Below are positions 2,031 through 28,004 of a stretch of 64,000 nucleotides of DNA, one piece after another. The first letter of the stretch is position 1. Every line of letters starts with the position of its first letter. The translations under genes were made by a program, and so were the position numbers. The stretch comes from Symbiodinium natans (lineage: Eukaryota; Sar; Dinophyceae; Suessiales; Symbiodiniaceae). The notes under the pieces were generated by a model. That model did not search any database. It was not told the DNA's origin and saw only the letters and a list, made by a program, of their open reading frames with translations. The DNA is taken from the NCBI GenBank assembly GCA_905221605.1, contig CAJNDS010002545.1, positions 40,001 to 104,000 on the forward strand, written 5' to 3'.

Positions 2031-2328
2031 AACCCTAAACCCTAACCCTAAACCCTAAACCCTGTTTCGGCATGATTGGACTCTTGGACGTTCCTGCAGT
2101 CTTTGTGCAGCTGGCGGGGCTCGAGTTCTGGGCATTGCATGCGCACACCGCTGTCATGTGACATGACAGCATGACTCATGTCCCAGAAAGGAGCGACAGA
2201 AGAGTGAGGGTGCAAGAAAAAATAGGAATTGTAGGGGGACGTTTAGGGCTTCTCAAGGAGTTTGGAGGGATTTGGGCCGACCCTGAAACCGCTCCTGCAA
2301 GCACTCGGACTTCAACACCGGCAAGAGC

Positions 2329-2377
2329 CCCCTAAACCCTAAACCCTAAACCCTAAACCCTAAACCCTAAACCCTAA
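2329..2377. repeat. telomere-type array, CCCTAAA on +
   Basis: About seven near-perfect CCCTAAA heptamers. The unique block at about 2380-2470 follows on the right, and TTTAGGG-oriented repeats appear beyond it at about 2505-2525 and 2573-2612. This left-C, right-G bracketing of a unique block recurs across the first 34 kb. Confidence 0.9.
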
Positions 2378-3068
2378 TTTTTCCACCGCGGCGGATGGCC
2401 CCGAGGCCTGTTTCCGGCTTTGCGAAGCTGGCGCGGCTCTCTACATCCTGCTGAGCCCTCCCTACCACATGGGTTTACGAACAGAAGGGACCCTAGGCTT
2501 TAGGGTTCAGGGTTTAGGGTTTAGGGTGGGGGTTTACGAACAGAAGGGGCCCCTAAAGGAGTCCCCCAATTGTAGGGTTTAGGGTTTAGGGTTTAGGGCT
2601 TAGGGTTTAGGGGAACATAGTCCCCCAAATGGGTGTTTCCGAAAATAAGGGGGTCCCACATCTCTTCAACAGAACATGAGGCCCTTGCATGCCCACGTGG
2701 ACCCCTTGGCAAAGGGCTTAGAGGACACAGGGAGCCGGTGGAGTGAAACTGCAGGGAAGGCAAACGTGAGAAGCTAGACGCTTACGCTTTCGAAAGCAGA
2801 CTTGCGGGAGGGTGCAGGACCTCGAAACCTTGGACTTTGGTGAATATGTACAGGGCGCTCGGCATGTTGTCATCTGCTGCGATGAAAAAAATGAAACATT
2901 AAACCACGATTTACAGGCCTCTGGGCAAGTAAAGTGCATCCCGTACGGCCGATCTCTGCTAGCAGGACTCCCCCTAACCCCTAAACCCTAAACCCCAAAC
3001 CACAAACCCTAAGCCCTCTCCAAAACAAAGCTCCAGATCATGCCGCTGACAAGCCGTGGATCATTCTT

Positions 3069-3126
3069 CCCTAAACCCTAAACCCTAAACCCTAAACCCT
3101 AAACCCTAAACCCTAAACCCTAAACC
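3069..3126. repeat. telomere-type array, CCCTAAA on +
   Basis: Eight perfect CCCTAAA heptamers, followed by a unique block and then TTTAGGG-type repeats at about 3225-3300. Confidence 0.9.
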
Positions 3127-3494
3127 TTCAGAATCTGCCTTCCCGGGGCTGCACCACGACACATCACGAAAACTCGCCGACCGGCGCTCCAGGCGCTTTT
3201 TATGGATCAGGTTTTGGGTTTTTATGGGTTTAGGGTTTAGGGTTCTAGGGTTTAGAGTTTACGGTTTAGGGTTAGGGTTAAGGGTTTAGGGTTTTACGTT
3301 TAATCCAGAGGACGCAGTGTCGGCAAGCTCGTTCTGTCTACTGCCCCGAGCGAGAGTCTGTATGTACAGTCTGCGTCGGTAAACTTGACCTCCACCTATC
3401 AGCTCTCCTACAACTAAAAAACCTGAACCCCAAACTCCATAAACCCCGAACCCCTTAAAAACTCCTCTCCCTTCGAAGGTACCAAGAGGCCGTT

Positions 3495-3569
3495 ACCCTA
3501 AACCCTAAACCCTAAACCCTAAACCCTAAACCCTAAACCCTGAACCCTAAACCCTAACCCTAAACCCTC
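3495..3569. repeat. telomere-type array, CCCTAAA on +
   Basis: About ten heptamers with single-base variants. It is followed by a GC-rich unique block at about 3600-3680 that could be a kinase-tail exon, then TTTAGGG-type sequence at about 3708-3725. Confidence 0.9.
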
Positions 3570-5394
3570 ATAGCGTAAGAGCACCAGGCCCAGAAAGCTC
3601 TCACCGCGCCGCTTTGGGCATCGGCCGCGTGAGCCCGGCGGGCGCCACCGGGCCCTCAGTCTGCACCGGAAAGGTCTCTTGTTTGGAGGTTTACTTCAGT
3701 TCGGTTTTTAGGGTTTGGGGTTTGCAAACTAATTACTATACGCGCTGATGAGCTAAGACAACATTTTAGGACAGGAGCCAGCTTCGCAAGTCAATCGTTT
3801 GCTGGACGTCATTCGAGATTGTGCAGCTCTGGTGAGCGTATGTCCAGGCAAGCCGCTGGATCCACTGTGGTGTCGGTGTCGCGGGAGTCCTGATTGCACA
3901 GATGGGGCTACCGCCATGATTTCCAAAGCTTTTCTTGCAGTCTCTAGGGAGGTACATGGACACGTAGAGCAGCGATGGCTCTCAAACCGAGAAGGTGAGG
4001 AGGATTCCTTCCCGACTCCGTCCTGCTAGCAGGTCTACGAACCCAACAAGCCAACAAGTGGCGTGCCATGAACAGGTCACAGGGGCTTGTGCAGGATCAC
4101 GGGATCAAGACCCCAGAGCTTGAAACATTGCACGGCAAACGCCCCGCAAACACACCATTTTACTGCTTCCGAGTCCATGCAACCCCTAAAGCCTATAAAC
4201 CCAAAACCCCATTCGTGTTCCTTTGCGGCGATGATTGGAAATCTTTCAGACTTGCACCGGAAGCCCCCCAAGAAGGGCGCTACAAAATCTTGGCCCTCCA
4301 GGGAACTGAAGGCCCCCCTTGTTAGGGTTTACAGGCGGCAAAGGAAGTCGAAACCACCCATCCCACTTATAGCTAAACCCCAGTGAACGCACCGGTTCAA
4401 GCGAAGGCGAAGAAAGCACGACCAAAACCGACATCCCCATTGAACGCTGTGGGCGGAAAGCTTGTTGAACAGCACCAAAGCATGGGTACAAACTCAGTTC
4501 CCCGAAGGAACGCTAGGGTCAACCTGGTCCTGACAACCAACTGAGATCAGGTATTCATTTTGGATTCCCCAATGAACGCCAAGGACATTTCAACCCACCC
4601 CCCCCCCCCCCCCCCTTCTTGAGACGGTTTTGGGCCATCCCCCCCTTTCCCCCTTCTCAAGAGACTCAAGAGCACTGTTTCTTGCGCAACCTGCGCTCTG
4701 CTGAGCGACACCTCACAACTTTTTTTTCTGGGCGGTAGCTCCTGTCTACTCATCGGCTCCTGGAGGTACTGAGCCGGGGGACGTGAGCTGTCTGTGGGAA
4801 TGGGGTGTGCAACCTCGCAAGACCAGAAGAACAACAACTGTCCCAGCTAAGCCTTGTCACTGTCAGAAAACATGATAAACGCGCCTATACTCAATATTTC
4901 TGATCCGTTTCCCCCCAATGAACGCCGGGCGGTAACGCCTTCCCTGTTTTTTTCCCCCCAGTGATTTGCATCAAAAACAGTGACCGGTTTAAACTTTCAC
5001 GGTTCACAGTAGGGCTTAGGGTTTAGGGCTTAGGGTTTATTCAGATGTCTTCCCGAACCCAGGTCCTGGTCCGTTTCGCTCTCCATGAAACGAGCCTTCA
5101 AGGAGCGTCATGGTCTGGAATTTGCTGAAGCCACAAGTATAGGAGGGCCCTTAAAAACCTCTGAACAAATATTCCTGACTAGAATCCTCGTAAACCCAAT
5201 AAGTGAAATAAGCGAAAAAATGTAAGATGCCCCAAGGGCCTACCGAGACAAGGTCTCATAGCTGCCACTTGGGACAAGCTCTCAGTGCCCTCAGAATCGG
5301 AAAAGAAGAGGGAGCCGTTTTTTTGGTCTGTAGAGGGCTTCAAAGCGCGGGCCCTTAGCAACCCCAAGCCCCCTTCATCCCTTAATCCTGACCC

Positions 5395-5900
5395 CCTAAA
5401 CGCACCCCTAAACCCCTTAACCCCGATCCCCTAAACCCCTAAACTCCTTAACCCTTATCCCCCCCCCCAAACCCCTCAACCCCTCCATAAACCCTAAACC
5501 CTAAACCCTAAACCCTAAGCCCTAAAACCCTCAACCCCCAAACCCTGGACCCACCCCACCAAGCTCTCCAGGCGCCTGCCGCCGCTGCTCCCAGCGTTGG
5601 TCGCGAGGCCGCGCGGCGGCCCTTGGGCTCAGAATTTGGGAAATTTTCGAAAAGGGGTTTTGGGGGGTTTTAGGGTTTAGGGTTTAGGGGTTTAGGGTTT
5701 AGGGGACAGAGTTTATTTAGGGTTTAGGGTTTAGGGTTTTCAGGGAGGGGTTTAGGGGGTGAGGGCGGCTTAGGGGATTTAGGGGTTTAGGTATGTTAGG
5801 GGATTTCCGGGTGAAGGGGTTGAGGGTTTGAGGGGTTTTCGGGGGTGTAAAGGAGATAAGGGCTTAGGGGTTTAGGTGTTGAAGGTAAGTTTCGGGTTTA
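5395..5900. repeat. degenerate telomere-type repeats bracketing a unique block
   Basis: CCCTAAA and CCCCTAAA variants run to about 5545. A GC-rich block follows at about 5560-5640. TTTAGGG and TTTAGGGG variants run from about 5660 onward. On the minus strand the block could encode a short basic peptide containing RWEQRR, also seen at 17868-17891, but the frame is uncertain. Confidence 0.7.
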
Positions 5901-5947
5901 GGGTGTTTGTAGAGCCTGCATCCAGGACTCGGAAACATGTGAAATGT

Positions 5948-6057
5948 TTCCCTAAACCCTAAACCCAAAACCCCAAACCCTAAACCCTAAACCCTAGAAC
6001 CCTGAAACCCTAGAACCCTGAAACCCTGAAAACCCTAGAACCCTAAAACCCTAAACA
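5948..6057. repeat. degenerate CCCTAAA / CCCTAGAA array
   Basis: Heptamers, then longer units with extra A or G (such as CCCTAGAA), directly left of a unique block at about 6060-6170. The TTTAGGG array at 6176-6244 closes the bracket. Confidence 0.8.
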
Positions 6058-6175
6058 GGGCAGTCCAGGCACCCACTGCTGGAGTCGGAGACCGGTGGCG
6101 TCGGCACTTTCGCAGGGAGCCTGGCCTGCGGAGCACACTGAACTTTCCAAGCCTGGGGCTGCCTTTGAAGGTGGG

Positions 6176-6244
6176 GTTTAGGGTTTAGGGTTTAGGGTTT
6201 AGGGTTTAGGGTTTGGGGTTTGGGGTTTGGGGTTTAGGGTTTAA
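6176..6244. repeat. telomere-type array, TTTAGGG on +
   Basis: About nine heptamers including TTTGGGG variants, directly right of the unique block at about 6060-6170. Confidence 0.9.
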
Positions 6245-6742
6245 GGGCATTAGGGTCTCTTTGCAAGGTTGGGGGATTCCGAAAATAGGGGTACTCTCTT
6301 TGTGGGTCCTTTTGAGGGGATTCTATTCTATTTGGGGTAAAAAAAGGTGCACCCCTATTCTGGGAAATGCCCAGGTGGGCTGCTTTTGAAGGTTGGCAGT
6401 ACTTGCAGGGTAGGGTTTATAAGGTTTAGGGCTTCTGGGGACGTTTAGGGTTTACAAGGTTCTACTTGTAGGGTAAGGTAGGGCTTCTAAGGTTTGGGGG
6501 ATTCTAAGGTTTTGAGGGTTTACAGGATTCTAAGGCGCCCCCCTTGTAGTGAGCAAGCAATCTGGCTTCTTTCACACCCTGTTGGAAGGAAACTTGAGCA
6601 GGGCTCTCGTCCCTGTTCCAGATCTGCTTCCTGTTTCAGATCTGTTTCCTTCTGCAAAGAAACACATGGAGTAGAACACCAGAAGCCAAGTTCTTTTTTT
6701 GGGTAGCCCCTCCAAGTGAAGACCCTAATCCCTAAACCTTAA

Positions 6743-6828
6743 ACCCCTAAACCCCTAAACCCCTAAACCCCTAAACCCCTAAACCCCTAAACCCCTAAAC
6801 CCCTAAACCCCTAAACCCCTAAACCCTC
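6743..6828. repeat. homogeneous eight-base variant array, CCCCTAAA on +
   Basis: About eleven near-identical CCCCTAAA octamers in a row, a different unit from the surrounding heptamers. Uniformity within one array suggests local amplification of a variant unit. The kinase-tail exon at 6857-6898 lies directly to its right. Confidence 0.9.
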
Positions 6829-6856
6829 CCTGAACCCTAGATGGAGCTAGGCTGGC

Positions 6857-6898
6857 CTGCGGCCCCGCACTCGCTGGCCGTCTGCGCACACGCACGAC
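6857..6898 (-). CDS. kinase 1 tail exon (VVRVRRRPASAGPQ)
   Basis: A 42-base exon reading VVRVRRRPASAGPQ on the minus strand, preceded by AG at the acceptor and followed by a GC donor. The matching exon of kinase 2 at 19092-19133 has exactly the same length and reads VVRIRSRPSSAGPQ. The pair of conserved short exons is good evidence that both are coding. The basic Pro/Ser-rich sequence suggests a disordered tail C-terminal to the kinase domain. Its splice partners are not established. Confidence 0.7.
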
Positions 6899-7816
6899 CT
6901 TGCATGGAGAGGGCACCCTTGAGCACCAGCAGCTCATATCCTCCCTATATGGCCTGTAAAGCCTCCCAGCCCTATGTAGACTCTCTGTGAACCTTCTATA
7001 GCGACCTTGTACATTGCGATAAGAGACAAGCCCTGATTACAAATTGGGTCAAGATAGGTCAAGGGAGTCCGAACAGCCTCCGTCTCCCAAGGTGGCAGCG
7101 GCCGCGGTGCAGTATGAGGTTGGGCCTCGCACAACGGTTGTAGATATCTACGCGGTCGAAGGAGGCAAGGAGATTGAAAAGGGTTTTCTGTCCAGTGGGC
7201 AGGCACGGGCACCACAAATTGAAAGCAGGGGTTAATTCGCAATCGGAGATCCGACCATGATACGCCAGCAACCTACGCATGAAGCTTAAGCCCTAAACCC
7301 AAGGCCCTATAAACTCCAAGCTTCTTATGAAAGGCATCATACATAGCCCCCCCAGGCCCATCCTACAGCCCAGGACATCGAACATCGAGGTGCATCCTTC
7401 TTGCGCTTGCAGCAACTGAAACTCAGTGAAACCCTCAACCCCAAACCTCTCAACCTCTAAACCCTAAACCCCTGAACCCCTGAACTCCAGGGCTTTTAGG
7501 CAGGGTGGTCTGGGTGGCGGGTGCCCGGGCGCTTTTGAAGTTTGAGGGTTTTGGGGTGAAACTGGCAGTAAGCAACGCCCCAAGAAACTCTCTAAACCCT
7601 CTAAACTCTATCTAAACCCTAAACCCTGCATCGAAACCCTAAAAACCCTTCAAGCGGGGCGTGCACCTTGTCCCACCCCCAGCCTCAACACCACACCTGA
7701 ACCCAGCTTAACTCACAAGATCCCCCCAACTCTCCCAAACCCTCCCCTAAGTTCAGGAGCGTGTGCATCCCTGGAGCCCTCAACCCCCCAAACCCTCCCC
7801 AACAGACCCGCACGAC

Positions 7817-7893
7817 CCCCTAAACCCTAAACCCTAAACCCTAAACCCTAAACCCTAAACCCTAAATCCTAAACCCTACACCCTAACCCTGAA
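7817..7893. repeat. telomere-type array, CCCTAAA on +
   Basis: About ten heptamers with a few variants, left of the candidate exon at 7915-7967. Confidence 0.9.
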
Positions 7894-7914
7894 ACCCCAG
7901 AGAACCAAGCCGAC

Positions 7915-7967
7915 CTCATGCTCCCGCCGTAGCGGCTCGCTCGGCCGCGCAGGCTCCCTTTCATCAG
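7915..7967 (-). CDS. possible kinase 1 tail exon (Arg/Ser/Gly-rich)
   Basis: Between AG-G at the acceptor and a GT donor the minus strand reads SLRGRASRYGGSMR. CCCTAAA arrays lie on both sides, so this block does not follow the usual opposed bracketing. No paralogous exon was recognised, so coding status is tentative. Confidence 0.35.
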
Positions 7968-7978
7968 ATCCTAAACCC

Positions 7979-8028
7979 TAAACCCTAAACCCTAAACCCT
8001 AAACCCTAAACCCTAAACCCTAAACCCA
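7979..8028. repeat. telomere-type array, CCCTAAA on +
   Basis: Seven perfect heptamers to the right of the candidate exon at 7915-7967. Confidence 0.9.
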
Positions 8029-8465
8029 GAGGCAGTAGTTGTAGGGCTGAGCCGTTGCGCCCTTCATAAAAAAGGGTTCCCCCCCGGCCATAAATAAGGC
8101 TCGTCCTCTGGCCCCCCCGTGTGTTGCAAGAGGTTCCCTCAAACTTAAGGGTGATCCAAGGGCTGACAAGTTCGGCCAGGCCATTTTTTCATAGATGTTT
8201 GTAGGGCTTTGCTTGCAATACTCTCCAAGTGCTGAGAGCTGAACAGGGGCGTCTCCACTCTCAACACACATCCTGCGCAGCAAGCCGAACGAAGCCCCCA
8301 AGAAGCCCCTAGAAGAGTGGTTCACAAGTAGCCAAGCCAAAGCCTTAACCATGTCTGAACATAGCGATACTGAACATACATGTCGAGCCCTACTTATAGG
8401 TACCCATGAACCTGAAAGTAGCGTCGCGACACGGAGGCCATCATCCCCCTGGGGTCCACGCGGGC

Positions 8466-8562
8466 CCAACGCCTCGGCCCACTTCGCCGCCGCAGAGTTG
8501 GCGCGGAGCTTGCCCGAGCGCGAGAGCCTCTCCAACGCGCTTTGCAAAGCCGCTTTGTGCAC
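8466..8562 (-). CDS. putative exon, helical Ala/Leu/Arg-rich
   Basis: After an AG-G acceptor the minus strand reads VHKAALQSALERLSRSG and continues with an Ala-rich stretch containing AAAKWAEAL, with a possible GC donor at the end. The composition is protein-like and amphipathic. It lies on the same strand as kinase 1 and downstream of its last domain exon, so it may be part of the tail or of a separate gene. No family is recognised. Confidence 0.5.
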
Positions 8563-8963
8563 CTGTATGGGGGTTTACGAACATGGGGGAACCCAAATAT
8601 GAGCCCCCAAGTAGTAGGATTCCCTGAAGATGAGGACCCCAAGTACCCCTAATTTCGGAAATCCCCGTATGAGCACAACAAGGACCCATGCCAGCTTGTT
8701 CACTCTTCTTTCCTGGCGGTAGCTAGTGTTCAACAAGCACCAAGCGGCAGGATCAGGAATGCGCCTTCCTAGGGGGGGCTTTCCTCTCCCTCTCCCCAAC
8801 TAATGCCCCATAAGTTAGATCAACCCTCCTCTCTCCTAAGCCCTAAACCCTAAACCCTAAAACCCCAAAACCCAAAATCCCTAAACCCTAAAACCCTAAA
8901 AATACCCAAGCCCCCCCCCCCCCTTCATGTGAACAAAAATTCTGTGGGTCGCCCTCACGGCAC

Positions 8964-11900
8964 CTTCGGAGCAACGTTTCAGCCGAGGGCCGCTTGGCGG
9001 GATCGCGTGTTAGCCTCATGGCATTCAATGCGGTTTGGGGTTTAGGGTTTGGGGTTTGGGGTATAGGGTTTGGGGTTTGGGGTTTAGGGTTTAGAGTGTA
9101 GAGTTTAGTTACGGTTTAGGGCCTCATTCCTCCCCCCCCGACCCACCTTGGGACTCTCTCTGGGCACACCTACTAGTTGCCGAACTGTAGGTAAATCGAG
9201 TCCTAGGCATAGCCTCCTAAGCGCTCCAGAGATGTACCCTGCCCGATGTAGATTTATGTCAGTCTGAAGAGCCGCTCCGTATGACCCTCAACCCTAAACC
9301 CTAAACCCTAAACTCCGAAACCCTAAGCCCTAAACTCCTAAACCCTAAATCCGAAACCCTAAACCCCAAACCCTTGAACCCCGAATGGATGCTGAGTGGA
9401 AAGAAACTCAGAGCCTCTATCATCCTGGCCCTGGGCCGAGCATCCGAAACCCAAATAGGGTTACAAGTGTTTGTAGGGCTTGTAGGGATTTATAGGGTTA
9501 GGGTTGTGGTGACAGTTTTTTGAAAGAGTACCCTAAACCCTAAACCCTAAACCCTTTTAACTCCTTTGGGGAAGAATCCCGACAAGCCCCGCAGTCGCCG
9601 GGCGGCATGGACGAAACGATCTGTGAGAACTCCTGGCCGGAACATGCGCTCGAGCTTCGGGATCTGCCAGGGTTTAGGGTTTAGGGTTTTTAGGGGTGGT
9701 GTAGGGTTTATACCTCAGGGTTTCGTTTTTTTGGGCAGAATAGCCGCCTTGACTCTGTTCTCAGTTAGTGCGAATCTTGAGAGTGTACACTTGGGTCTAT
9801 AGTAAACCCTAAACCCCAAACCCTAAACCCCAAAACCTAAACCCTAAACCCTAAACCCTAAACCCTAAACCCTCGCAGCTTCTTGAGGCACCCTGCGCGC
9901 CTGCGGCCGGAAGGCGGGGATCGGCGCGTACCTTTTTGAAGGGCCAGGGTTTAGGGTTTAGGGTTTAGGGTTTAGGGTTTAGGGTTCAGCATCTCAAGTC
10001 CAAGCATTCACTAGTCAAGAAATTATTACTCCAGAAAAATCCCATCCGCCCGAAGAATCCCACAACCTTAAGAAAAATTTCACTTATGGAACGACCTTGC
10101 CCAATAAAAAAATGACCTTGCCCAATAAAAAATGACCTTGCCCAGTAAAAACATGACCTTGCCCAGTAAAAAAATGACCTTGCCCAGTAAAAAAATGACC
10201 TTGCCAGTTAAAAAATGACCTTGCCCAGAAAAAAATGACCTTGCCCAGTAAAAAAATGACCTTGCCCAGTGAAAAGATGACCTTGCCCAGTAAAAAGATG
10301 ACCTTGCCCAGTAACATTGTTACTGGGCAAGGTCATTTTTTACTGGGCAAGGTCGCTTTTTTTGACGAAACGACCTTGCCCAGTAAAACAATGACCTTGC
10401 CCAGCAAAAAAATTACCTTGCCCAGGAAAAAAATGACCTTGCCCAGTAACTCCATTATATATGAAAGAGAGGTTTAGGGTTAGGGTTTAGGGTTTAGGGT
10501 TTAGGGTTTAGGGTTTAGGGTTTAGGGTTTAGGGTTTAGGGTTTAGGGTTTAGGGTTTAGGGTTCGCGTTTGGAGGGTGCTTTCTGATGGGTGATTGTTG
10601 CTTGTTGTTTGGGCTTGCAGGTTTGGAGGGTTTGCGGAGTGACTTACTGGGATTGGAGAGCTCTTGGAGGTTTGCGGGGCTTCGGGCGCTTTGAGGCATA
10701 GGGTGTTACAAGGCCTATAGAATCCTAAGGGTCCATGTACCTAAATAGGGAATACCTGGGCCTTAACGTACTTCCTATTTCGGGACTTTGGGGCCCAAGT
10801 ATATAAACCCTAAACCCTAAACCCTAAACCCTAAACCCCTAAACCCTAAACCCCTAAACCCCAAAACCCCAAACCCTATAGGAAGCCAAGGGGCTGCCCG
10901 CGGAGCACGGCTGCAATGACATCCTGGCCCCCAGATTTCTAGGGCTTGACACTGAGCACCTGAGCACCTTAAACCCTTGAAGCTCTTCGAATCCCGACAA
11001 ACCCTAGAATCAGTTTTTTTACACGTACGTGTAAAAAAAACTAGTTCTCGGAATCCCGAGAAACCCTGGAAACGCTAGAAACCCTATAAGCCCTAGTACT
11101 TGAAGGATCGGGGGGCACGTATAACGTGGGGATATCAGTGCCCTAAGTAAGGTTACAGCCATAGTTACCCCCCACTTCGAACCCTACTCAGACGTACCCA
11201 TGAACCTCCACAAGCATACCCTTAATCCTATATACCCTTCTAAGCCCTTGAAGCCTAACAACGGCCCCCTAACAACCCTACATACACCTATCAGCTCTTG
11301 TTCAAGCCGAAGATGCCACAAACCCGGAAGCCCGACCTTAAGCCCTGAACCCACCCGTTTAGGGTTTAGGGTTTAGGGTTTAGGGTTTAGGGTTTTAGAG
11401 GCCACCATCCTGCAAGCTCTTGCCCTTGAAGGGCAGCTCCAAGGTCAGAAGCTCCTCAGCACAGCGCGGCAAGGGTTTAGCGGCTTTTAGGGTTTAGAGG
11501 GTTGTTTGGCTTGCAGGGTCTGTTTAGTCTAAAGGGTGTTAAGGGTTGGGGCTTTAAGGGCTTTAAAGGGGTTTAAAAAGGGGTTAAAGCTGCTAAGCTG
11601 TTACAAAAGCCTGGAGTAAAAGGCCACGGGTTCTGATTGCTTCGGCTTCGTGCGTTTGTGCACGGGCAGGTTCATCCCTTGTTGCAGATGACCTGCGAAG
11701 CCAGAGATAAAGCGCGCACTGTCTGTGAAACTCTCTCTCTCTCTCTCGTAAGCATGCGCTCCTAAAGCAGATCCGAGCTGCATAGAGCACGACTCCCAAG
11801 GACCAGATGTCGGTGGTGCTGGTGTACGTCTGCCCTGGAGAGTTTCAGGCACCCGGTCGATTGCATATTCAAAAACCCTAAACCCTATAGCTTAAACAAC

Positions 11901-14900
11901 CCTAAAGCCCTAAAAGCACACCAAACACGAAACCCGCAACAAGAGCAGACGTGAAACAAGTGGCGTCCTTTTGTGCCAACCGGCCCGCCTTCGATCATCT
12001 CCGGAGAGAAGTAGAGGGGCGTGCCGTAGAAGGATTGCAAACACACCGTCTTCCTAAGCAGCGTTTCGCATTTGCAGGGTTCATTAGGTTAAGTTCTGTT
12101 CAGCTTAAGGCTTAAACATCGTGTGAAATGCTCCGGGTGTCTCAGACATCTGTCGCGAGACGCCGAAGTCGCCAAGCTTTATGACGCCCTCATCCGTAAG
12201 GAAGAGGTTCATGGCCTGCCCCGAGGCTACCGTTGGTATCCAGCTTCTGCCAGGGTGTTTCAAGAGTGAAGGAGGGAGCAAGTGGGGACTGTTCGCACCC
12301 GGAGGGCTTTTGAATGCCTCAGAGAGCAAAAAAAGTGCCAACGCAGCCCCCTCCAGCAATTCATCACCAGCTATCCGGGACGGACGCTTAAGTCGGGAGT
12401 GGCGCCTTGATGTCCCGATGCACGATGCCACGGGCGTGGATGTGACACAGGCCCATGAGCACCTCGCTTTCTACTAATCTGATAACAAGATTCTTCCTTC
12501 TAAGGGCAAAAAAAGGATTGGTGTTTTGTTGGGGGGTTCTTAAGCAAGCAAATAATTAGTAGTTTTCTCCCATGGTGGCGATTGCTGCACAAAGGACATC
12601 AAAGTGGTCAAGGACCCCTGACAGTCCTTACTTTTAACCCACCGCACACAGCACGCACAGACAGTTCGGGAACATGAGGAGGGTTCAGGGTCTTAGGGTT
12701 TAGGTTTAGGAGGGAGACCCCTAGAAGGGACCCCTTGATCTTATTGCCCTATATAATGACGACATGTACCTTATGCAGCCCCCCAAGGAGCCCCTAAATA
12801 CCGCCTACATTACCGTACCTTATCAGGCTCCCTCCTTTAGTCCCTTGAGAAAGATCGCGCAAGTTCTCAATGGGTTTTAAACCGTGTGATGAAGGTGAGA
12901 CTGAGAAGTATTTGGTGTTGTTGCTGCAGCAGATAGCTCACAAACAGGCCTGCGCCAGAGTGTCCCACACTTCCTCGTCCCCAAAGGGCTTCCTTTGGAT
13001 TCACCGGCTTTTGAGATCGCAGGACATGTCTCAAGATAATTGAGGTTCAGGGTAGGTGTGTCTATCCGCGAGAATAACCAGAACGCGCTTCTTCATGCAA
13101 TGCAGGCATGGCTGTTATTGGGACAACCTTCGTTTCTACTCGATCCAATAAGCTTGCTCCAGCCGAAGTTCGCCAACTGCCTACTATGCTGCTCTTGAAA
13201 GGCTTGAACATAGGAATGTTGCTCGATGCTCCCGTTTGCTTCGCACTATTCGAGAACCTGGTTTCGACACATCCCCAGAACACGGGGCGGCACTCTTGAG
13301 CATTTTCCATGCAACCACAACCACCCGGAAGCAATGCAACCCAAGCCGGCAACGCACAAAAGCGAAGAAGTAGGAAAATATAAAGCTTTAGCATGTAGCC
13401 TAAACCCAAAACCCAAAAACTACAGCCAGGGTACCAGGATCCGAAGCCCGAAACACCCATACCTCAACGTTCATGCGTACTTGTACGTAGGAAATAGGTC
13501 GAAATAAGGCTATAAGCACAGTTGCCCTACTTCTAAGCACCCATGAACTTCCCAACACGATGCACCCTGAAATGTCGCGGGAGCGTCCCCAGCCGCTTCC
13601 GCTTCTGAAGCTCCCAATGGAGATCGCCACGGTTGGCGTACCTCAGCTAGTATAGATAAAAACATCGTCCTTACAAGGGAAATATAGGAATTATTATCTT
13701 TTTTTATTCGACCAGCTTCACAGCCAAGTTACTCTAGGGGCCCTGATACTTAGAATAGGGTTTTGGGGGTTATTGTAGTATGGTTGTTTTGACCATAAGG
13801 AAATACTATTAGTAAGTATTCCGACCCCTATATTACCCTAAAGAGGATCTAAAGAGGTCCGATCAATCCACACACAAGCTACGATCGGGGCTCAGGGTTC
13901 TGCAGGGTTCAGGGTATAGGGCTCGATGCAGAAGAAGGCATTGAAGCCTTTTGTCCAACCGTACACAGCAAATGCGACGCTAACCTGGGAAAATCCTAAG
14001 GAGCATTCCTTCTATCCTTACTGAAGGGATAATGGTGTCTCTGGGAAAAAATGTCCTGTTCCTCGGCTCCTGGATTCTTATGCTAACCTCAGCTTGCCAA
14101 GACTGGGGTGGGTTGGTTGAGGGTTTAGGGTTTAGGGTTTAGGGTTTAGGGTTTAGGGTTTAGGGTTTAGGGTTTAGGGTTTAGGGTTTAGGGTTCCGGG
14201 TTTAGGGTTTAGGGTTTAGGGTTTAGGGTTTAGGGCAAGAAAGCTCCCCCCCCAAAAAAATCTCGAGCCGAGCATCTCCAGCACGATGTAGAGCGATTGC
14301 GAAGGGAAGTCCCAGAAGTAGCCGTAGCAGCGAATGATGTTCGGGTGGCTCAGCTTCTTCATGACCTGCAAACATGGGGTTTAGGGCTTAGGGCTTAAGG
14401 AGTTTGGGGTTTAGGGCTTAAGGGTTGAAGGAGTTAGGGAGTGTAGGGTTTAGGGTTTAAGGAGATTAGGGTTTAGGGTTTAGGGGTTGAAGGAGTTAAG
14501 GAGTTCAGGGTTTAGGGTTCAAGGAGTTCGGGTGGCTCAGCTTCTTCATGACCTGCAAGAATGGGGGCGGTGTGGGGCTGATCGTTTAGGGTTCAGGGAG
14601 TTTAGGGTTTAAGGAAGGGGCGATTTGGGGCTTATAGGGTTTCAGGAGTGGAGGAGTTTAGGGTTTAGGGTTTAGGGAGTTTTGGGTCTGGTGGTTGAAA
14701 GCAGGCATTTCGGGTGCCTGTGAACAGAACTGAGGATCTCCACACGGGCCTGTGGCAGGAACTGCCTTTGCAGCACGCTTTTTTTCCCTCAGCGTATACA
14801 ATACAATGAAAAATCATGTGTATATATATATATATATAATATGTATATACACATTGTATATACATACTCATCATATGCAATGATATACCAACAATAACAG

Positions 14901-15855
14901 CATATGAGAAAAGTACGAAAATGATATGTGCCCCTCGAGCTATAGTTCGCGAACATGCGCTGCGGCCTGGAATCTTCCGCCCCCCGCGTAACCTTAAAGG
15001 CTCCTAGTCTTAGCAGGGACTGACGGAGTTCGGGTTCTTAAGTGACACCCTTCTAAAGCATCTTCAAGCCACTTCGAAAAGGTCGCGCCTCATACTCGTT
15101 GAGGAGGTCCTGACAAGAAGACATATAGGGCACGAAGCGCCTAGCAAAGGTAGCGTGTTTCTGCGAGCAGAAACTTGACGGAGTTGAGCAACTTTGGTGC
15201 CACCCCCCCCCCCCCCCGCCTCCTGACCCGTCATTACTCTACAGTGATCCCGATCCTTGTAGTCCCCATCCATTCCAAAGATCCCTCGTGGCTTTCGACC
15301 TAGACCTCCCGTGCCATGCCACCCTGGCACCATTCAGAGAACGCTTCGGGGCCCCCCCTGTTGCGAAGCTACGCGACTCGAGTCGAGCTCAGCCAAACTC
15401 GCCGAGGTGGGACCCAAGGATGGCAACAGCACTTGACCGAGGAGTAATCCAGTTTAAAGCCCCCCCCCCAAAAAAAAAAGGTACCCTTTTTGGTTTAAAG
15501 GAGCTTCTGCGGGAACCCACCCCCCCCCCCCCCCCCCCAAAAAAAAAAGGGAAGAAGGGCTGGGTCCTAGAATAACATGCAAAAGTTGCTTACTTTACCG
15601 ACACAAACCGGTCTCCGAGATCAGGCGCCTTGAGGAAGCCCACTTTGCCGTAGATGCTGGGAAAGGACCACCATCAATAGACACTGCTGTGGAAGTTACG
15701 TGGGCTGGAGAATGAGAATAAGGGTTCTAGACCCTAAACCCTAAACCCTAAACCCTAAACCCTAAACCCTAAACCCAACACCCAACTATCCCCTGGGGGC
15801 GCGCCTTGGCCTTGCCCAACTCCGGTGCTCTTCGCCGCTTCAGGACGACAAGCTC
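8964..15855 (-). CDS. kinase 1: NEK-like serine/threonine protein kinase, 14 exons
   Basis: Protein kinase domain, predicted to phosphorylate Ser/Thr. Frame-consistent minus-strand exons, 5' to 3', are 15805-15855, 15089-15109, 14277-14365, 13594-13641, 12950-12992, 12406-12462, 12142-12215, 11989-12053, 11782-11834, 11410-11454, 10898-10923, 9901-9931, 9604-9632 and 8964-9014. They supply VVLK (the likely ATP-binding lysine), KLSHPNIIRCYGYF, the hinge YANRGDL, the catalytic loop HRDIKAMN, LGDFGVSR, YGTPLYFSPE, DIWSLGVVLY and DPAKRPS, so every core catalytic motif from the lysine onward is present. The YGTPLYFSPE segment and LGDFGVSR suggest a NEK-like kinase; the family call is by eye. Donors are GC (10), GA (3) and GT (1), and every acceptor is AG followed by G. 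The glycine-loop exon appears out of order at about 15600-15652. Start codon and tail are not resolved. Kinase 2 upstream on the same strand is a paralogue. Confidence 0.85.
9669..9720. repeat. TTTAGGG repeats at the acceptor end of a kinase 1 intron
   Basis: Short TTTAGGG run about 35 bases on the intron side of the acceptor of exon 9604-9632. The same intron opens with the CCCTAAA-oriented array at 9803-9873. Confidence 0.85.
9803..9873. repeat. CCCTAAA array at the donor end of a kinase 1 intron
   Basis: About ten heptamers (variants first, then five perfect) within about 30 bases of the donor of exon 9901-9931. On the transcript they read TTTAGGG. Confidence 0.9.
9948..9987. repeat. TTTAGGG array at the acceptor end of a kinase 1 intron
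   Basis: Five perfect heptamers starting about 16 bases from the acceptor of exon 9901-9931. On the transcript they read CCCTAAA and could pair with the donor-end array at about 10805-10880. Confidence 0.9.
10085..10452. repeat. minisatellite of about 21 bases (ACCTTGCCCAGTAAAA core) with an orientation switch
   Basis: About seventeen copies of a unit with core ACCTTGCCCAGTAAAA and a variable A-run. Eleven copies run in one orientation, two are inverted at about 10318-10355, and the rest return to the first orientation from about 10369. The first switch forms a 17-base-arm palindrome at 10300-10334. The block sits inside the kinase 1 intron 9932-10897. The repetitive open frames across it are artefacts of the repeat. 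Confidence 0.9.
10472..10564. repeat. long perfect TTTAGGG array
   Basis: About thirteen heptamers, nearly all perfect, directly after the minisatellite and inside the same intron. This is one of the cleanest interstitial telomere-type arrays in the window. Confidence 0.95.
12142..12215 (-). CDS. kinase 1 DFG exon
   Basis: Encodes AMNLFLTDEGVIKLGDFGVS and then RQMS, ending two bases into a Glu codon at a GA donor. The next exon (11989-12053) begins with the G that completes the codon and supplies YGTPLYFSPE. The metal-binding DFG and the activation-segment anchor are intact. Confidence 0.9.
12406..12462 (-). CDS. kinase 1 catalytic-loop exon (HRDIK)
   Basis: A 57-base exon in phase 0 encoding VLMGLCHIHARGIVHRDIK. 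It ends exactly before the residue preceding the catalytic-loop asparagine, which is in the next exon (12142-12215, starting AMNLFL). The donor reads GC and the acceptor AG-G. The paralogous exon at 24523-24578 is spliced at nearly the same place. Confidence 0.9.
14121..14235. repeat. TTTAGGG array
   Basis: About sixteen heptamers with one variant (TTCCGGG) near 14191-14200. It lies on the donor side of exon 14277-14365, in the opposite orientation to the common pattern, so this intron is an exception to opposed bracketing. Confidence 0.95.
14526..14557. repeat. duplicated fragment of a kinase 1 exon start
   Basis: About 30 bases repeat the sequence at 14343-14369, the start of the VMKKLSHPN exon with its acceptor, inside degenerate TTTAGGG repeats. 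It looks like a partial copy left by local duplication and is too short to act as the full exon. Confidence 0.7.
14815..14880. repeat. TA-rich microsatellite
   Basis: TATA/TATG-rich run including a TA dinucleotide tract at about 14819-14838. The open frame across it is low-complexity. Confidence 0.85.
15600..15652 (-). CDS. possible kinase 1 glycine-loop exon, out of order
   Basis: The minus strand reads IYGKVGFLKAPDLGDRFVS after an AG acceptor, with a GT donor. It resembles strands 1-2 of a kinase domain (glycine-rich loop GKV) and would join in phase to ELVVLKRR of exon 15805-15855. That exon lies upstream of it in transcript order, so the arrangement is scrambled. It could be a duplicated exon, an assembly error or a decoy. 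Confidence 0.5.
15731..15776. repeat. CCCTAAA array at the donor end of a kinase 1 intron
   Basis: Six perfect heptamers ending about 28 bases from the donor of exon 15805-15855. Confidence 0.9.
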
Positions 15856-15874
15856 CTGCAAAAGTGGGGTTTTG

Positions 15875-16112
15875 GGGTTTAGGGTTATATAGGGTCTTTT
15901 AGGGTTTAGGGTTTAGGGTTAGGGTTTCGGGTTTAGGGTCTAGGGTCTAGGGTCTAGGGTTTAGGGTTTAGGGTTTAGGGTTTAGGGTTTAGGGTTTAGG
16001 GTTTAGGGTTTAGGGTTTAGGGTTTAGGGTTTAGGGTTTAAGGTTTAGGGTTTAGGGTTTAGGGTTTAGGGCTTAGGGTTTAGGGTTTAAGGTTTAGGTT
16101 TAGGGTTTAGGG
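15875..16112. repeat. long TTTAGGG array with variants
   Basis: About thirty heptamers with scattered TCTAGGG, GCTTAGGG and TTTAAGG variants. It begins about 20 bases on the intron side of the acceptor of exon 15805-15855. It is one of the longest telomere-type arrays in the window. Confidence 0.95.
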
Positions 16113-17220
16113 CACTCCAACGAATGCATGAAGGGGCTCAGCAGCCGACAATATGCCAGAAACTGCTACTTGCACTGTTCCGAGCCTATCTGGCTCATGT
16201 CGTTCCTAAGTGGAGAATCTGTTGCTTGGAGGTTCAACTACTATTTGCTTGAATAATAATCCCTACATTGCCCTTCTAAGGCACAAAAAAGACATATATA
16301 TATATATATACACATATTTTTCATCATATTTTCATTTTTTCTTATTGGGGGGGGGGGCTCTTAAGCAAATAGTAGTCATGGGTGAGAAGGAGCCCTGCGA
16401 AAAGCTCCTCGCTCTTCCTGACCCGCGCCACATGCACAGACGCGGAATCGTTGGACTGAAGGTCCTGAACACAAGGGGGCTGGGCTTTCTTGTGCTGGAC
16501 AGATCATGTGCCACACATGTCTCAGGCATCGCGGCATTCTGTTGGCGTTCCATGCACTCGAGCGCAGAAGGAACTTCAGAGCAAGGGCTGAAAGTAGTCT
16601 TGACAGCGAGCATGTGCTCGTATCCTACATCATCGGCCGCGTGGACAGAAGCTGAACATGTCGAAGGCCTATTTGAAAAACCCTAAGCCCCGAAACCGTG
16701 TAAACCCAGTGTTTGGGGTTGAGGGATTAATTAGGGTTTAGGGCTGATAAGCCCCTATACGCAAAAGAGGCTTCGGGAGAGTTCCGTGCCAACAAGTTCC
16801 TTGCGGAACCGGCGGTCCTTGAGGAGCTCGAACTGCCTTGCGACATATATATACATGTATATATATATATATATATATGTATATACATTTTCTTCATAAT
16901 AATAAGAATAATAGTACTAATAATAATAATATGAATAATAATGATAATAATAAATACTACTAATTGTAAAGATAATAATAACAATTAGGGCACATACTTC
17001 GGATCCCTTATGCAGCCTTAGAAGCAAGAGAACTGTGATGATTCTTATGTCCTAGTAGGGATTATAATGGGAGGTACTCTTATCCCTATTTTAGGACTGT
17101 TAGTATAAGGGGGAACCTCCCAGTGTCAATGTTGTAATATGCCACAGAGTCGAGACCTCTTGCGGAGTGTGGAAAGCGAGTCGGACATGAAGGCCGCGGC
17201 CACAACGCGACTGTCAAGAT
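16113..17220. other. intergenic or intronic, AT-rich microsatellites, no firm gene
   Basis: Contains a TA tract at about 16293-16310, a TA tract at 16855-16880 and an AAT-rich run at about 16898-16985. On the minus strand 16790-16842 reads FELLKDRRFRKELVG after an AG, which could be an N-terminal kinase 1 exon, but nothing confirms it. Confidence 0.5.
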
Positions 17221-17270
17221 GCCCCAGGGTTTAGATCCTAAACCCTAAACCCTAAAATCCAAAAAGTACC

Positions 17271-17291
17271 CCCCCCCCCCCCCCCCCCCCC
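17271..17291. repeat. poly-C tract
   Basis: About twenty consecutive C. Similar C or G homopolymers recur near 4601-4617, 15203-15218, 15521-15538, 43006-43016, 50127-50143, 52768-52787 and 53847-53866. Confidence 0.9.
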
Positions 17292-17324
17292 TAATTTTCC
17301 TACATTACGCTGACCCAGACTTCA

Positions 17325-17402
17325 TCACATTCTCCAGGCTGCTCGCGGTGGTTGAACTCGCCGACGCTGGAGGGCCGGCCCTGCAACCTCTCCACCGCGT
17401 AC
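17325..17402 (-). CDS. kinase 2 tail exon (RPSSVGEF)
   Basis: After AG-G the minus strand reads YAVERLQGRPSSVGEFNHRE and then QPGE. The core RPSSVGEF is matched by RPPSVGEF at 27177-27230, which supports both as coding exons of paralogous genes. The exact 3' end is not fixed. The sequence looks like a disordered C-terminal region. Confidence 0.6.
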   Translation of the reverse strand, partial: VRGGEVAGPALQRRRVQPPRAAWRM

Positions 17403-17867
17403 CTCACAGGATTATTGGGTGTAGGGTTTAGGATGCTGAGTGCCATCACCTGCTTGGGGTTTAGGGCTCTTACTCGGTTTTTCGTACCCCCTGGAACCCA
17501 AAAGTACAACAGACCAATCAAGCTGACAGCCATTTCAAATCCAGGCGGGCCAAGCCCACAACCTTGTGCACTAAACCCAACCCCTAGAACCCTACTAACC
17601 TTGAACCCTAAGCTTAGAACCCAACAACCCTAAAACAATGAAGCTCGAAAACCCTATTCACCCGAAAACCCTAACACCAGAAACCCCCAAAGAAGCCCAA
17701 AGCCCTAAAATCAACAGCCCCCAAACCCACCCAAACCCTAAACCCTAAACCCTAAAACCCTAATTCTCAAACCATATAGTTACAAACCACCCTAAACCCT
17801 AAACCCTAAACCCCAAACCCCAAAGCCCCTAATCCCCTGCGCCAAGGAGCGGCGCCGGGGCGTGGGC

Positions 17868-17891
17868 CAACCGCCGCTGCTCCCAGCGCTC
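17868..17891 (-). CDS. possible micro-exon ERWEQRRL
   Basis: Twenty-four bases between an AG-G acceptor and a GC donor, with a similar RWEQRR-coding stretch at about 5590-5615 in the kinase 1 tail region. It sits between a CCCTAAA-type block on the left and a TTTAGGG array on the right. The frame is uncertain because no second junction confirms it. Confidence 0.35.
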
Positions 17892-17924
17892 CTATCGAGT
17901 GAAGGGCAAACCTGAACCCGGTAG

Positions 17925-18060
17925 GGTTTAGGGTTTAGGGTTTAGGGTCTAGGGTTTAGGGTTTAGGGATATAGGGATATAGGGTTTAGGGCTTTGGGGG
18001 TTCTAGGGGTTTTCTTGTTCAGGGCTTTAGGGCTTATTGGGTTTAGGGTTTCTGGGGCTG
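17925..18060. repeat. TTTAGGG-type degenerate array
   Basis: Heptamers with ATATAGGG and TTTAGGGC variants, on the acceptor side of the possible micro-exon at 17868-17891. CCCTAAA-like degenerate repeats follow at about 18140-18270, before the next exon. Confidence 0.85.
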
Positions 18061-18272
18061 ATCGGACTCAGAAAGAAGGTTTACATGGGGCTGTCTCACG
18101 GCGGCCCGGGCCTCACGAAAAACGAAAAAAAGACAATCCTTCACCCTATAAACCCCAAAAAGCCCCCTAAAAACCCCCTACTAAGCCCTCAATAAAGGCC
18201 CTAAACACCCCAAAAACACCCAAAAACCCTCAAAACCCCAAAAGCCCTCAACAAAACCCCCCCCATCCTCGC

Positions 18273-18360
18273 GCAGGTTCTTGACCGCATGGAGTGGCCC
18301 AGTCGCACCGGGCGGCAGCTCGCGGCCCGGAGGTGGCGTCTCAGGCTCGAGGAGCTTCAC
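18273..18360 (-). CDS. kinase 2 tail exon, Pro-rich
   Basis: Between a CAG-G acceptor and a GC donor the minus strand reads VKLLEPETPPPGRELPPGAT and then GPLHAVKN. CCCTAAA-like repeats lie on the left and TTTAGGG-like repeats on the right, as for other exons of this locus. It is probably a disordered part of the kinase 2 C-terminal region. Confidence 0.55.
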
Positions 18361-18379
18361 CTGCTCTTTTGAGGGGGGG

Positions 18380-18620
18380 CTTAGGGTTTTTAGGGATTTT
18401 AGGGTTGTTAGGGTTTTTTGGGGCTTTTAGGGTTTAAGGGGTTTAGGGTTTTTCGGGTTCGGTTTTTATAGGGCTTACAGGGCTTGTAGGGTTTATGGGT
18501 TTATGGGGTTTACAGGGTTTATGGGGTTTATGGTTTAGGGCAGGGTTTGTCGGCTGTGTAGGGTTTTGCAAGGGTTTAGGGTTTACTGTTAGGGTGCTGG
18601 GTTTGTAGGGTTTAGGGTTT
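18380..18620. repeat. degenerate TTTAGGG / TTTATGGG repeats
   Basis: Loose heptamer to nonamer repeats with GGGGTTTA and TTATGGGG variants on the acceptor side of exon 18273-18360. Confidence 0.8.
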
Positions 18621-19091
18621 AGACTCTAGTTTATATTTAGAGTTTCTAGGGCTTTGAGGGCTTCTAGGCTTTGGCGGGCTTGGGGAAGCAGTTCGTGGCT
18701 TGGGGCCGGGGAGTTTGTCAATTTCACGATGCTGAGAAGAGGCTCGAGAGGCTGCCGGCAGAAAGCTGTCAAAAACAAGGGTTGACGCGCACTCCGAAGT
18801 GCCAAACATGCCTGATGGTTCATGGGCTATACTTATATAATCTTTTATAAGTATAGGGCACCGATGGGCACCGACAAGGGAGGTTACCCTGGACATAAGT
18901 ACCCGCGAATCAGGTTGCAACCGACTGATTCTCACTACAGGTGGAGCTCGCTGACGGATAACCATGAACCCTAAACATCCCTAAACCCCAAAAATCCTGA
19001 ACCCTGAAGCCTAAACCCCAAACCTCCAAGTGCTGTAATTGAAACCCCCCCTCCCCCCTCTCCTGCCCCCCTCCTATTCACTCTGTCGCAC

Positions 19092-19133
19092 CTGCGGTCC
19101 CGCACTGCTGGGCCTCGAGCGGATGCGCACAAC
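19092..19133 (-). CDS. kinase 2 tail exon (VVRIRSRPSSAGPQ)
   Basis: A 42-base exon encoding VVRIRSRPSSAGPQ, flanked by a CAG-G acceptor and a GT donor. The kinase 1 exon at 6857-6898 has the same length and 10 of 14 identical residues, but its donor is GC. Confidence 0.7.
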
Positions 19134-20335
19134 CTGCAGAGATGTCAAGGGACCCAAAGAGCCAATAAACGGCGCCTTATTTCGATCAGAGTGCTTATTC
19201 AAACAGTATAATCCGTAATTCATAGCAAAACAGCAAACAAACAAAAATGGTAACGCGCGGAGCCGCGCACGCTAACGTGACCCGAAGCCCTTCCTACAAT
19301 TGGACCCGAACCGAAGGGTCTGGGTAAGTCCTGGACCGGGTCTTTTTCGCGAGCTACAGGGAGGGGTTGCTGGTTCTAAATTGCAGGCTCGTCTTCTTTT
19401 GGGGGGTCTCCTTTCGTGTACATTCCGCCTGAGGGAAGTCCTGAGGCTAGCAAAAGGCCCTCAAATTCAATCAGACCCCCCCTCCCCCCATATTGAAGCA
19501 TGACCTGGCCTGGTGTCCCTCGTTTCGGGCCACTTCGGCAGGCGACCGATTCTCCTGCGAGCGCCGTGCCAGCGCGCAACATCTGTTCTCAGGTCAGCTG
19601 GAAGCCGAAGCCCACACAGGTCAAAGACTTCACCTCCTAAACCCATAAACCTGCCATAAACAATAAACACCAAACACCCTTAGCTCCTAAAGTACACCTG
19701 AGCCCTTACAGCAGTCATTCATAGCAAGCCCGCGCCTCCCACTTAGCGCACTCTGAGAGAACCTCGGAATGCTTTCTCAAACGCCTGCAGAAAGACCCCC
19801 TCCCCCTCCCTCCCCCTCCCCCTACCACCGCTCGACTTCCTTATCTGGGGGCTTCTTGGCGTCGATCGGCCTGGCAAGAGTGCATTCCTCTTTCTTGTCC
19901 GTGCTGTGGCGCAGCCTACTTGCACATGGACCTCCAATCTTGAGCTCGGCTCATCTATGTTTAGGGTTTAGGGTTTAGGGTGTAGGGGTATATACACTGA
20001 GGATGAGAGCTGTGTTGACAAATGAGTGCTCGACTCGGATTTACGGCTCATTCGACCCCCCCTGCCTGGGCTCTTGGATGTCCTTCGGACGGAAGAGCTT
20101 GCCGAAAGACCTCGGCTCGCTGGTGAAGTGGCTGGGCGCAACCCGACGCAGAACATGAAAAACTGGCTCTCCCTCTCTCTCCCCTTGGGCCCTCTGCTCT
20201 CAGCAAAGAGCTCAACCATGTTCCATTTCGTCATACGGGGGGTCTTCGGGATGGATTTGTGTGATGCAGACCTATTTTGGAGAATGAAGGGATTGTCGGA
20301 TCATCTTGGGAAAGTTCCTTGAAGCCGAGTGGCTC

Positions 20336-26822
<6,487 letters not shown>

Positions 26823-27773: not shown

Positions 27774-27968
27774 TACACACACATACATACATACATATAC
27801 ATATATATATATATCCTCATATATATATATATATGTGTGTGTGCACTTTAACAAGCATTGCCTACCCAAGCACCCAGGCACACAAAAACACATTTATATT
27901 AACATACATACATACATACATACATACATACATACATACATACATACATACATACATACATACATACA

Positions 27969-27998: not shown

Positions 27999-28004
<6 letters not shown>

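What the first reader, a model, noticed from the sequence alone, without database searches (positions are those of the whole stretch)
9015..10897. Introns that open with TTTAGGG and close with CCCTAAA repeats, able to fold on themselves
In kinase 1, three consecutive introns with frame-fixed borders (10897-9932, 9900-9633, 9603-9015, transcript order) each carry CCCTAAA-on-plus repeats by the donor and TTTAGGG-on-plus repeats by the acceptor. On the minus-strand transcript each reads UUUAGGG near its 5' end and CCCUAAA near its 3' end, which are perfect complements. The kinase 2 intron 26765-26464 has the same plan, and many unresolved blocks from 2.3 to 33.9 kb are bracketed the same way (CCCTAAA left, TTTAGGG right). 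I infer that telomere-type heptamers serve as intron-terminal inverted repeats, either as a stem joining weak splice sites or as the ends of an intron-creating element. Exceptions are exons 14277-14365, 11410-11454 and 23254-23328. I do not know this design as an established system.
Basis: partly seen in the sequence, partly recalled or inferred. Interest (0 to 1): 0.88.

Follow-up and report, generated by a model that had tools for sequence, protein, structure and literature searches.

The report
Telomere-like repeats flank exons, oriented by splicing
In this alga's genome, DNA repeats like those that cap chromosome ends sit inside many introns, mostly pointing one way after an exon and the opposite way before the next; the same intron can exist with or without them, and why they are oriented is not known.

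Summary
The window lies in a 759-Mb dinoflagellate genome (species inferred: Symbiodinium natans). In transcript sense TTTAGGG ('T') tends to follow donors and CCCTAAA ('C') to precede acceptors. In 119 hand-picked exons of other genes, T lies within 50 nt of the donor edge in 15 of 102 edges, C in 0; C lies within 50 nt before the acceptor in 11 of 109, T in 4. Genome-wide, C-to-T matches 90-120 bp apart outnumber T-to-C 134,342 to 47,188; at 0-30 bp, where no exon fits, the order flips (2,282 to 6,284). Most edges (78 of 102; 87 of 109) have no heptamer within 200 nt. The proposed roles are not supported: 4 of 13 copies of one actin intron carry a C array and 9 none; kinase 2 keeps one of the three focal introns without heptamers; only 1 of 5 array-bearing introns elsewhere clearly runs T to C. 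Best reading: interstitial telomere-type minisatellites inside pre-existing introns, oriented by what splicing tolerates (TTTAG|GG resembles an acceptor). The donor-side bias stays unexplained, and by contig the 200-nt bias is not significant (15 v 7).

The parts
9932..10897 (-). kinase 1 intron 1 (966 nt): GC donor, AG|G acceptor; 7 exact T copies about 40-90 nt after the donor, C arrays in the middle and just before the acceptor; holds a 21-bp satellite; no intron at this place in kinase 2
9901..9931 (-). 31-nt kinase 1 exon (YAPIPAFRPQ)
9633..9900 (-). kinase 1 intron 2 (268 nt): 6 T copies near the donor, 3 C copies near the acceptor; intron position shared with kinase 2, which has no heptamer there
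9607..9632 (-). 26-nt kinase 1 exon (EFSQIVSSM)
9015..9606 (-). kinase 1 intron 3 (592 nt, donor corrected from 9603): T, T, then C arrays
8960..9014 (-). kinase 1 exon LTRDPAKRPSAETLLRRCR; low end approximate
26464..26765 (-). intron upstream of the kinase 2 exons found here: one exact T copy near the donor, 4 C copies near the acceptor
20670..21628 (-). kinase 2 intron at the position of kinase 1 intron 2; filled with (GT)n, no heptamer (low end from a tblastn edge)
21629..21676 (-). kinase 2 exon AVLRGRFAPLPNWRPQ, unbroken where kinase 1 has intron 1
20396..20630 (-). kinase 2 intron about 10 nt downstream of the kinase 1 intron 3 position; no heptamer (edges from tblastn)
2030..34228 (.). 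heptamer-dense part of the window; most C..T gaps of 72-162 bp lie here
8569..8666 (.). copy of a ~102-bp near-palindromic element (family 4) with GGGGGTTTACG..CGTAAACCCCC consensus ends
22749..22852 (-). relative of an introner-like insertion (family 1) seen in L123 against an empty site in L122

Best explanation
These are interstitial telomere-type minisatellites lying inside introns that can exist without them, in a dinoflagellate. SHOWN: their orientation is biased by splice site, TTTAGGG on the donor side and CCCTAAA on the acceptor side; they are present in some and absent from other copies of an intron of fixed position; often only one end has one. INFERRED: they are gains rather than losses; arrays start by telomerase patching of breaks or by slippage; and splicing then filters them. 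TTTAGGG holds YYYAG|G, a ready-made dinoflagellate acceptor, so it is poorly tolerated just before the true acceptor. CCCTAAA has no AG and no G, so it is harmless there. GGG runs after weak GC/GA donors may be tolerated or helpful. The T..C pair within one intron is then a by-product of two separate end preferences, not an inverted-repeat element.
For: Edges of exons from other genes: donor 0-50 nt T 15 of 102, C 0 of 102; acceptor -50..0 C 11 of 109, T 4 of 109. The donor bias fades with distance, T:C edges 15:0, 12:5, 9:4, 4:2, then 9:5 at 200-300 nt. Genome-wide C..T to T..C is 134,342 to 47,188 at 90-120 bp and 2,282 to 6,284 at 0-30 bp. Arrays are absent from some copies of the same intron and degrade into variant units at both edges. 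Resolved introns without heptamers show no clear end-to-end complementarity (17 introns, mean 5.65 v 5.42; 2 of 17 at 8 nt or more against 5.9% of control pairs) and no donor-G/acceptor-C contrast: G is at least as common as C within 120 nt of both ends.
Against: The donor bias is the strongest signal and AG avoidance does not explain it; T arrays even contain GT. The acceptor bias alone is weak (11 v 4, p 0.12; 15 v 7, p 0.13). By contig at 200 nt the whole bias is 15 v 7, p 0.13. CTAAC/CTAAA is not enriched at ordinary acceptors, so branch-point mimicry by C arrays found no support. The bias rests on heptamer-rich genes: contigs with 2 or more heptamer edges are 10 net concordant, 0 net discordant, 1 tie, while contigs with one such edge are 5 v 7 (split made afterwards; two of the ten, C218 and C2303, were added after I had seen their heptamers). 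A filter on splicing should act in every gene.
Confidence: 0.42

Rival explanations
1. Remains of an introner or fold-back element whose terminal inverted repeats carried telomere-like seeds (GGGTTTA at the 5' end, TAAACCC at the 3' end), which later expanded by slippage. A symmetrical element gives T at the donor and C at the acceptor in either direction.
For: Introner-like insertions with inverted ends, one with a 6-bp target-site duplication, exist here. A ~102-bp family has GGGGGTTTACG..CGTAAACCCCC consensus ends, at 12 places in the 250 kb searched. In one listed match a C array is followed by such an end before the likely acceptor (C1:387622). It would explain both ends and a median distance of 29 nt from donor model edge to first T (19 edges).
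Against: Of 9 array-end contacts (one array counted twice), 5 have the expected orientation and 4 do not. The focal introns share no core with other introns held. Successive arrays in the window alternate no more than chance (56 alternating, 55 same). Actin copies and kinase 2 have the intron without arrays.
Confidence: 0.22
2. Breaks in introns healed by telomerase on both sides and then rejoined. Each exon then looks like a tiny chromosome, (CCCTAAA)n-exon-(TTTAGGG)n, with no need for splicing.
For: The orientation is exactly that of telomeres facing outward. T..C at 0-30 bp exceeds C..T 2.75-fold. Telomeric insertion at double-strand breaks is described for mammals (PMC7215372, passages). 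I saw no target-site duplication of 3 nt or more at kinase 1 intron 1 (by eye).
Against: Direct head-to-head joins are rare: 6,284 against 47,188 T..C at 90-120 bp, although palindromes may be unstable (recalled). The donor bias fades with distance from the splice site, which a random break site does not predict.
Confidence: 0.12
3. An RNA stem between T and C arrays is selected to bring splice sites together, or to join the two sides of an exon; AG avoidance fixes its sign.
For: The four focal introns fold better than shuffles: z -5.6 (200 shuffles), -6.5 (100), -3.1 (100, one shuffle as good), -5.9 (20).
Against: Pairing alone does not fix the sign, and complementary arrays also face each other across exons. 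Among 34 neighbouring exon pairs, 5 introns hold exact heptamers: one T..C (L084), one C,T,C (L065), three of one kind. The 4 array-bearing actin introns have C only.
Confidence: 0.1
4. Ordinary interstitial telomeric repeats whose apparent orientation is a sampling accident.
For: Contig-level sign test at 200 nt is 15 v 7, p 0.13; single-array contigs are 5 v 7.
Against: Donor T within 50 nt occurs on 11 contigs and C on none. Genome-wide counts flip with spacing.
Confidence: 0.05

Closest known systems
Introner elements with inverted repeats at intron ends (Amoebophrya, PMC7789003; Prorocentrum cordatum, PMC10666404; S. microadriaticum, PMC9860276; passages seen)
   Same: dinoflagellate introns with complementary sequence near both ends, predicted hairpins (Amoebophrya), non-canonical splice sites
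   Different: those are 8-20 nt repeats near the borders with 3-5 nt direct repeats, or copies of element families with 4-bp duplications; here the ends are tandem heptamer arrays with no shared core found, and the intron can exist without them
Interstitial telomeric sequences (human and horse, PMC7215372; passages)
   Same: telomere units at internal sites, some in introns
   Different: that paper reports placement compatible with random insertion; here about 2.4 million (TTTAGGG)3 matches and an orientation bias by splice site
Plant telo boxes (AAACCCTA; PMC3022908; passages)
   Same: the same heptamer; a telomerase-based origin is proposed
   Different: short motifs most frequent in 5' UTRs; no splice-site orientation in the passages seen
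Foldback transposons with tandem-repeat inverted ends (recalled, no call)
   Same: inverted ends made of variable tandem arrays with a variable middle
   Different: no common terminus, core or target-site duplication found for the focal introns

Membership tests
Introner element (TE-born intron) | intron appears with the element; empty site has no intron | tested here: not met
   the actin intron is in all 13 distinct copies matched, an array in 4; kinase 1 intron 2 is present in kinase 2 without array. Kinase 1 intron 1 is absent from kinase 2, so that one case stays open
Introner element (TE-born intron) | target-site duplication / short direct repeats at the borders | tested here: inconclusive
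   by eye none of 3 nt or more at kinase 1 intron 1; short repeats such as GGAG at the array-bearing actin intron may be splice consensus; not counted systematically
Introner element (TE-born intron) | similar copies in many introns | tested here: not met
   search of 250 kb held, heptamers masked: focal introns share no core with other introns; the rest of the genome was not searched for this
Amoebophrya-type introner | inverted repeats at both ends of the same intron | tested here: inconclusive
   met in the four focal introns; 1 of 5 array-bearing introns elsewhere clearly T..C, one doubtful; 0 of 4 array-bearing actin copies
Interstitial telomeric sequence | tandem telomere units away from chromosome ends | tested here: met
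   TTTAGGG is the telomere unit reported for dinoflagellates (PMC11453091, PMC7023079, passages)
Interstitial telomeric sequence | inserted by repair of a double-strand break | not testable with these tools
   no relative genome held
Telomere fusion scar | head-to-head (TTTAGGG)n(CCCTAAA)n join | tested here: inconclusive
   6,284 matches genome-wide at 0-30 bp, more than the reverse order (2,282) but few

The most novel reading that the evidence does not exclude
Telomere-type repeats act as a genome-wide exon-marking code in a dinoflagellate. CCCTAAA before and TTTAGGG after an exon recruit strand-specific RNA-binding proteins, or pair across the exon, and so define short exons whose own splice sites are weak (GC/GA donors).
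Probability: 0.13. Interest if true: 0.88.

Novelty: new variant of a known kind. Interest (0 to 1): 0.6.

Why it matters
At least 2% of this genome (my estimate: 2,369,589 match starts times 7 bases) is telomere-type sequence, and exon-sized C..T matches number over a hundred thousand. Whatever sets that orientation, splicing, telomerase or old transposons, can be tested with transcript data reported to exist. It would bear on how repeats enter introns without harm; PMC7215372 (passages) says it would be interesting to test whether telomeric repeats in introns affect splicing.

Tried and rejected
Intron-creating element: rejected as the general rule, left open for kinase 1 intron 1. One transposon family behind all arrays: masked search of the 250 kb held found no shared core for the focal introns; the GGGTTTA-ended family touches arrays in the expected orientation 5 times and in the other 4. 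General complementarity or skew of intron ends: not seen in introns without heptamers. Other simple repeats with the same bias: too few in the sample to judge. Branch-point mimicry: not supported. Rfam scan of the window at gathering scores: no family. Small-subunit rRNA: not answered. Chaperonin family: 6 matches, not used for edges. Coding test of 60-300 bp gaps: C..T median 5.3 (19), T..C 3.8 (11), p 0.015, T..T 3.95 (12), C..C 3.4 (10); background 4.0, known exons 7.5, so C..T gaps are only partly exon-like and the two strongest exons lie in T..T gaps. An independence fit of the exon-sized pairs (p 0.68; expected 16.9 C..T, 16.2 mixed, 3.9 T..C) is weak, since some same-orientation pairs may lie within one intron.

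Full report
WHERE THIS IS. The window is part of a 759,417,921-bp genome in 2543 contigs. The dinoflagellate spliced-leader word occurs 205 times and its backward control never. The size and a 3,396,986-bp contig fit Symbiodinium natans CCMP2548 (761,619,964 bp, longest scaffold 3.40 Mb, G+C 51.79%; PMC8045281, passages), and the window's G+C is mostly near 0.5. The published scaffold number, 2855, differs.

THE OBSERVATION. The window holds 431 heptamers against 14.8 expected. The three focal introns and intron 26765-26464 carry them as described. Borders are GC..AG|G, common in this group (PMC11453091, passages). The spliced frame reads as the end of a protein kinase through exons of 31 and 26 nt. 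A peptide joined from its exons finds many kinases in the PDB, GCN2 first and NEK1 second; NEK-type is my reading. The third donor is better at 9606. Intron 26765-26464 has a single exact TTTAGGG near its donor.

NOT ONLY THIS GENE. I took exons of actin, kinase, kinesin and dynein found by Pfam models. Five actin-type exons (L048, L049) were added after I had seen their heptamers. In transcript sense TTTAGGG lies 0-50 nt after the donor edge in 15 of 102 edges and CCCTAAA in 0 of 102. CCCTAAA lies in the 50 nt before the acceptor in 11 of 109 and TTTAGGG in 4 of 109. Without the five seen exons the figures, subtracted by me from the same listing, are 12 and 0 of 98, and 9 and 3 of 104. The nearest heptamer within 200 nt fits the pattern in 34 edges and contradicts it in 12 (p 0.0016). 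Taken by contig the result is weaker: 15 net concordant, 7 net discordant, p 0.13. Donor T within 50 nt comes from 11 contigs and donor C from none. Most edges, 78 of 102 and 87 of 109, have no heptamer within 200 nt. Edges are model edges, good to perhaps 15 nt (my estimate).

GENOME-WIDE COUNTS. Two C units followed by two T units 90-120 bp apart: 134,342 matches; the reverse order: 47,188. At 0-30 bp, too short for an exon with its flanks: 2,282 and 6,284. These are match starts, several per array pair, and no other spacing was counted. From the first 100 rows listed I count by eye about 56 distinct pairs in 415 kb of contig C1 for C..T and about 40 in 620 kb for T..C, a ratio near 2. The flip with spacing is what exon bracketing predicts: C..exon..T between introns, T..C inside them. 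In the window, C..T gaps cluster at 72-162 bp (18 of 28) and are somewhat more coding than T..C gaps.

ARRAYS ARE NOT NEEDED FOR THE INTRON. The actin intron after WDDM is found in 13 distinct copies among the loci held. Four carry 5-9 CCCTAAA units up to the acceptor; nine have the intron at the same place without any heptamer; none has TTTAGGG. In kinase 2, a nearby paralogue, the intron matching 9900-9633 has the same exon border and a GT microsatellite but no heptamer. The place of 10897-9932 has no intron, and the third intron lies about 10 nt further on, again without heptamers. So arrays were gained, or lost, inside an intron that stands without them; gain is my inference. Only intron 10897-9932 could have come with its array; by eye I saw no target-site duplication of 3 nt or more there.

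NOT A UNIT. Among 34 neighbouring exon pairs, 5 introns hold exact heptamers: L084 runs T to C, L065 reads C, T, C, and L067, L048 and L049 have one kind. L065 leaves 13 residues unaccounted for and may hide a microexon. In the window, neighbouring arrays alternate 56 times and repeat orientation 55 times. No shared core was found for the focal introns in the 250 kb held.

RNA FOLDING. The four introns fold with z -5.6, -6.5, -3.1 and -5.9 (200, 100, 100 and 20 shuffles). This follows from complementary arrays. It cannot by itself fix which array sits at which end, and the same layout lets arrays pair across exons.

INTRONER-LIKE INSERTIONS ARE ALSO PRESENT. Kinase copy L123 has a 96-bp insertion absent from paralogues L122 and L127, with a 6-bp duplication GCTTCT that gives the GC donor while the element brings the AG; a relative lies at 22749-22852 in the window. 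This resembles the scheme reported for S. microadriaticum, there with 4-bp duplications (PMC9860276, passages). Another family with GGGGGTTTACG..CGTAAACCCCC consensus ends is found at 12 places in 250 kb. Such seeds could have founded the arrays, but array contacts agree in 5 of 9 cases only.

GENE-LEVEL PATTERN. Genes tend to be all or none. Of 69 contigs, 46 have no heptamer edge, among them 0 of 9 and 0 of 8 edges. Eleven have two or more, nine of them at every edge tested (7 of 7, 4 of 4, 3 of 3 twice and 2 of 2 five times). The 11 are 10 net concordant and 1 tied; without the two genes seen beforehand, 8 and 1. The 12 contigs with a single heptamer edge are 5 concordant and 7 discordant. 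This split was made after seeing the data. It argues against a simple filter acting on every gene and may mean that heptamer-rich genes keep old introns.

MECHANISM. I hold most likely a set of telomere-type minisatellites gained in older introns and oriented by what splicing tolerates; TTTAG|GG before an acceptor is a decoy acceptor and CCCTAAA is not. The donor bias remains unexplained by this, so my confidence is moderate.

LITERATURE. Searches, of an open-licence library only, listed no paper whose title or abstract start describes telomere heptamers oriented by splice sites; most hits were not opened. Introners with inverted ends are described (PMC7789003, PMC10666404, PMC9860276; passages seen). 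Roy et al. 2023 in Current Biology, on dinoflagellate introners, I saw only as cited in other papers (PMC11453091; PMC10666404).

Noticed in passing
window 20804-21615: An 812-bp AC/GT microsatellite fills a kinase 2 intron whose kinase 1 counterpart holds heptamer arrays.
   Followed up: partly
window 10093-10449: A 21-bp satellite (GACCTTGCCCAGTAAAAAAAT) with copies on both strands inside kinase 1 intron 1.
   Followed up: no
window 35174-38362: A tandem repeat of 82 bp, about 39 copies, in the heptamer-poor half of the window.
   Followed up: no
L123 877-972 against L122 960-1010: An introner-like insertion with an empty site in a paralogue and a GCTTCT duplication; relative at window 22749-22852.
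   Followed up: partly
L064 1267-1376, L124 1287-1400, window 54306-54418: A second introner-like family with inverted ends TTGGTAGCCCAGT..ACTGGGCTACCAAG; AACC is possibly repeated at its borders in L124.
   Followed up: no
L054, L078, L079, window 17049-17122: A third family with GGGATGTTCCCC..GGGGAACATCCC-like ends.
   Followed up: no
69 contigs sampled: Heptamers are close to all or none by gene; contigs with a single heptamer edge show no orientation bias (5 v 7).
   Followed up: partly
window 50311-50977 and 56050-56747; 60157-62554: Local duplications; the first pair has heptamers at matching places, useful for dating array change.
   Followed up: no
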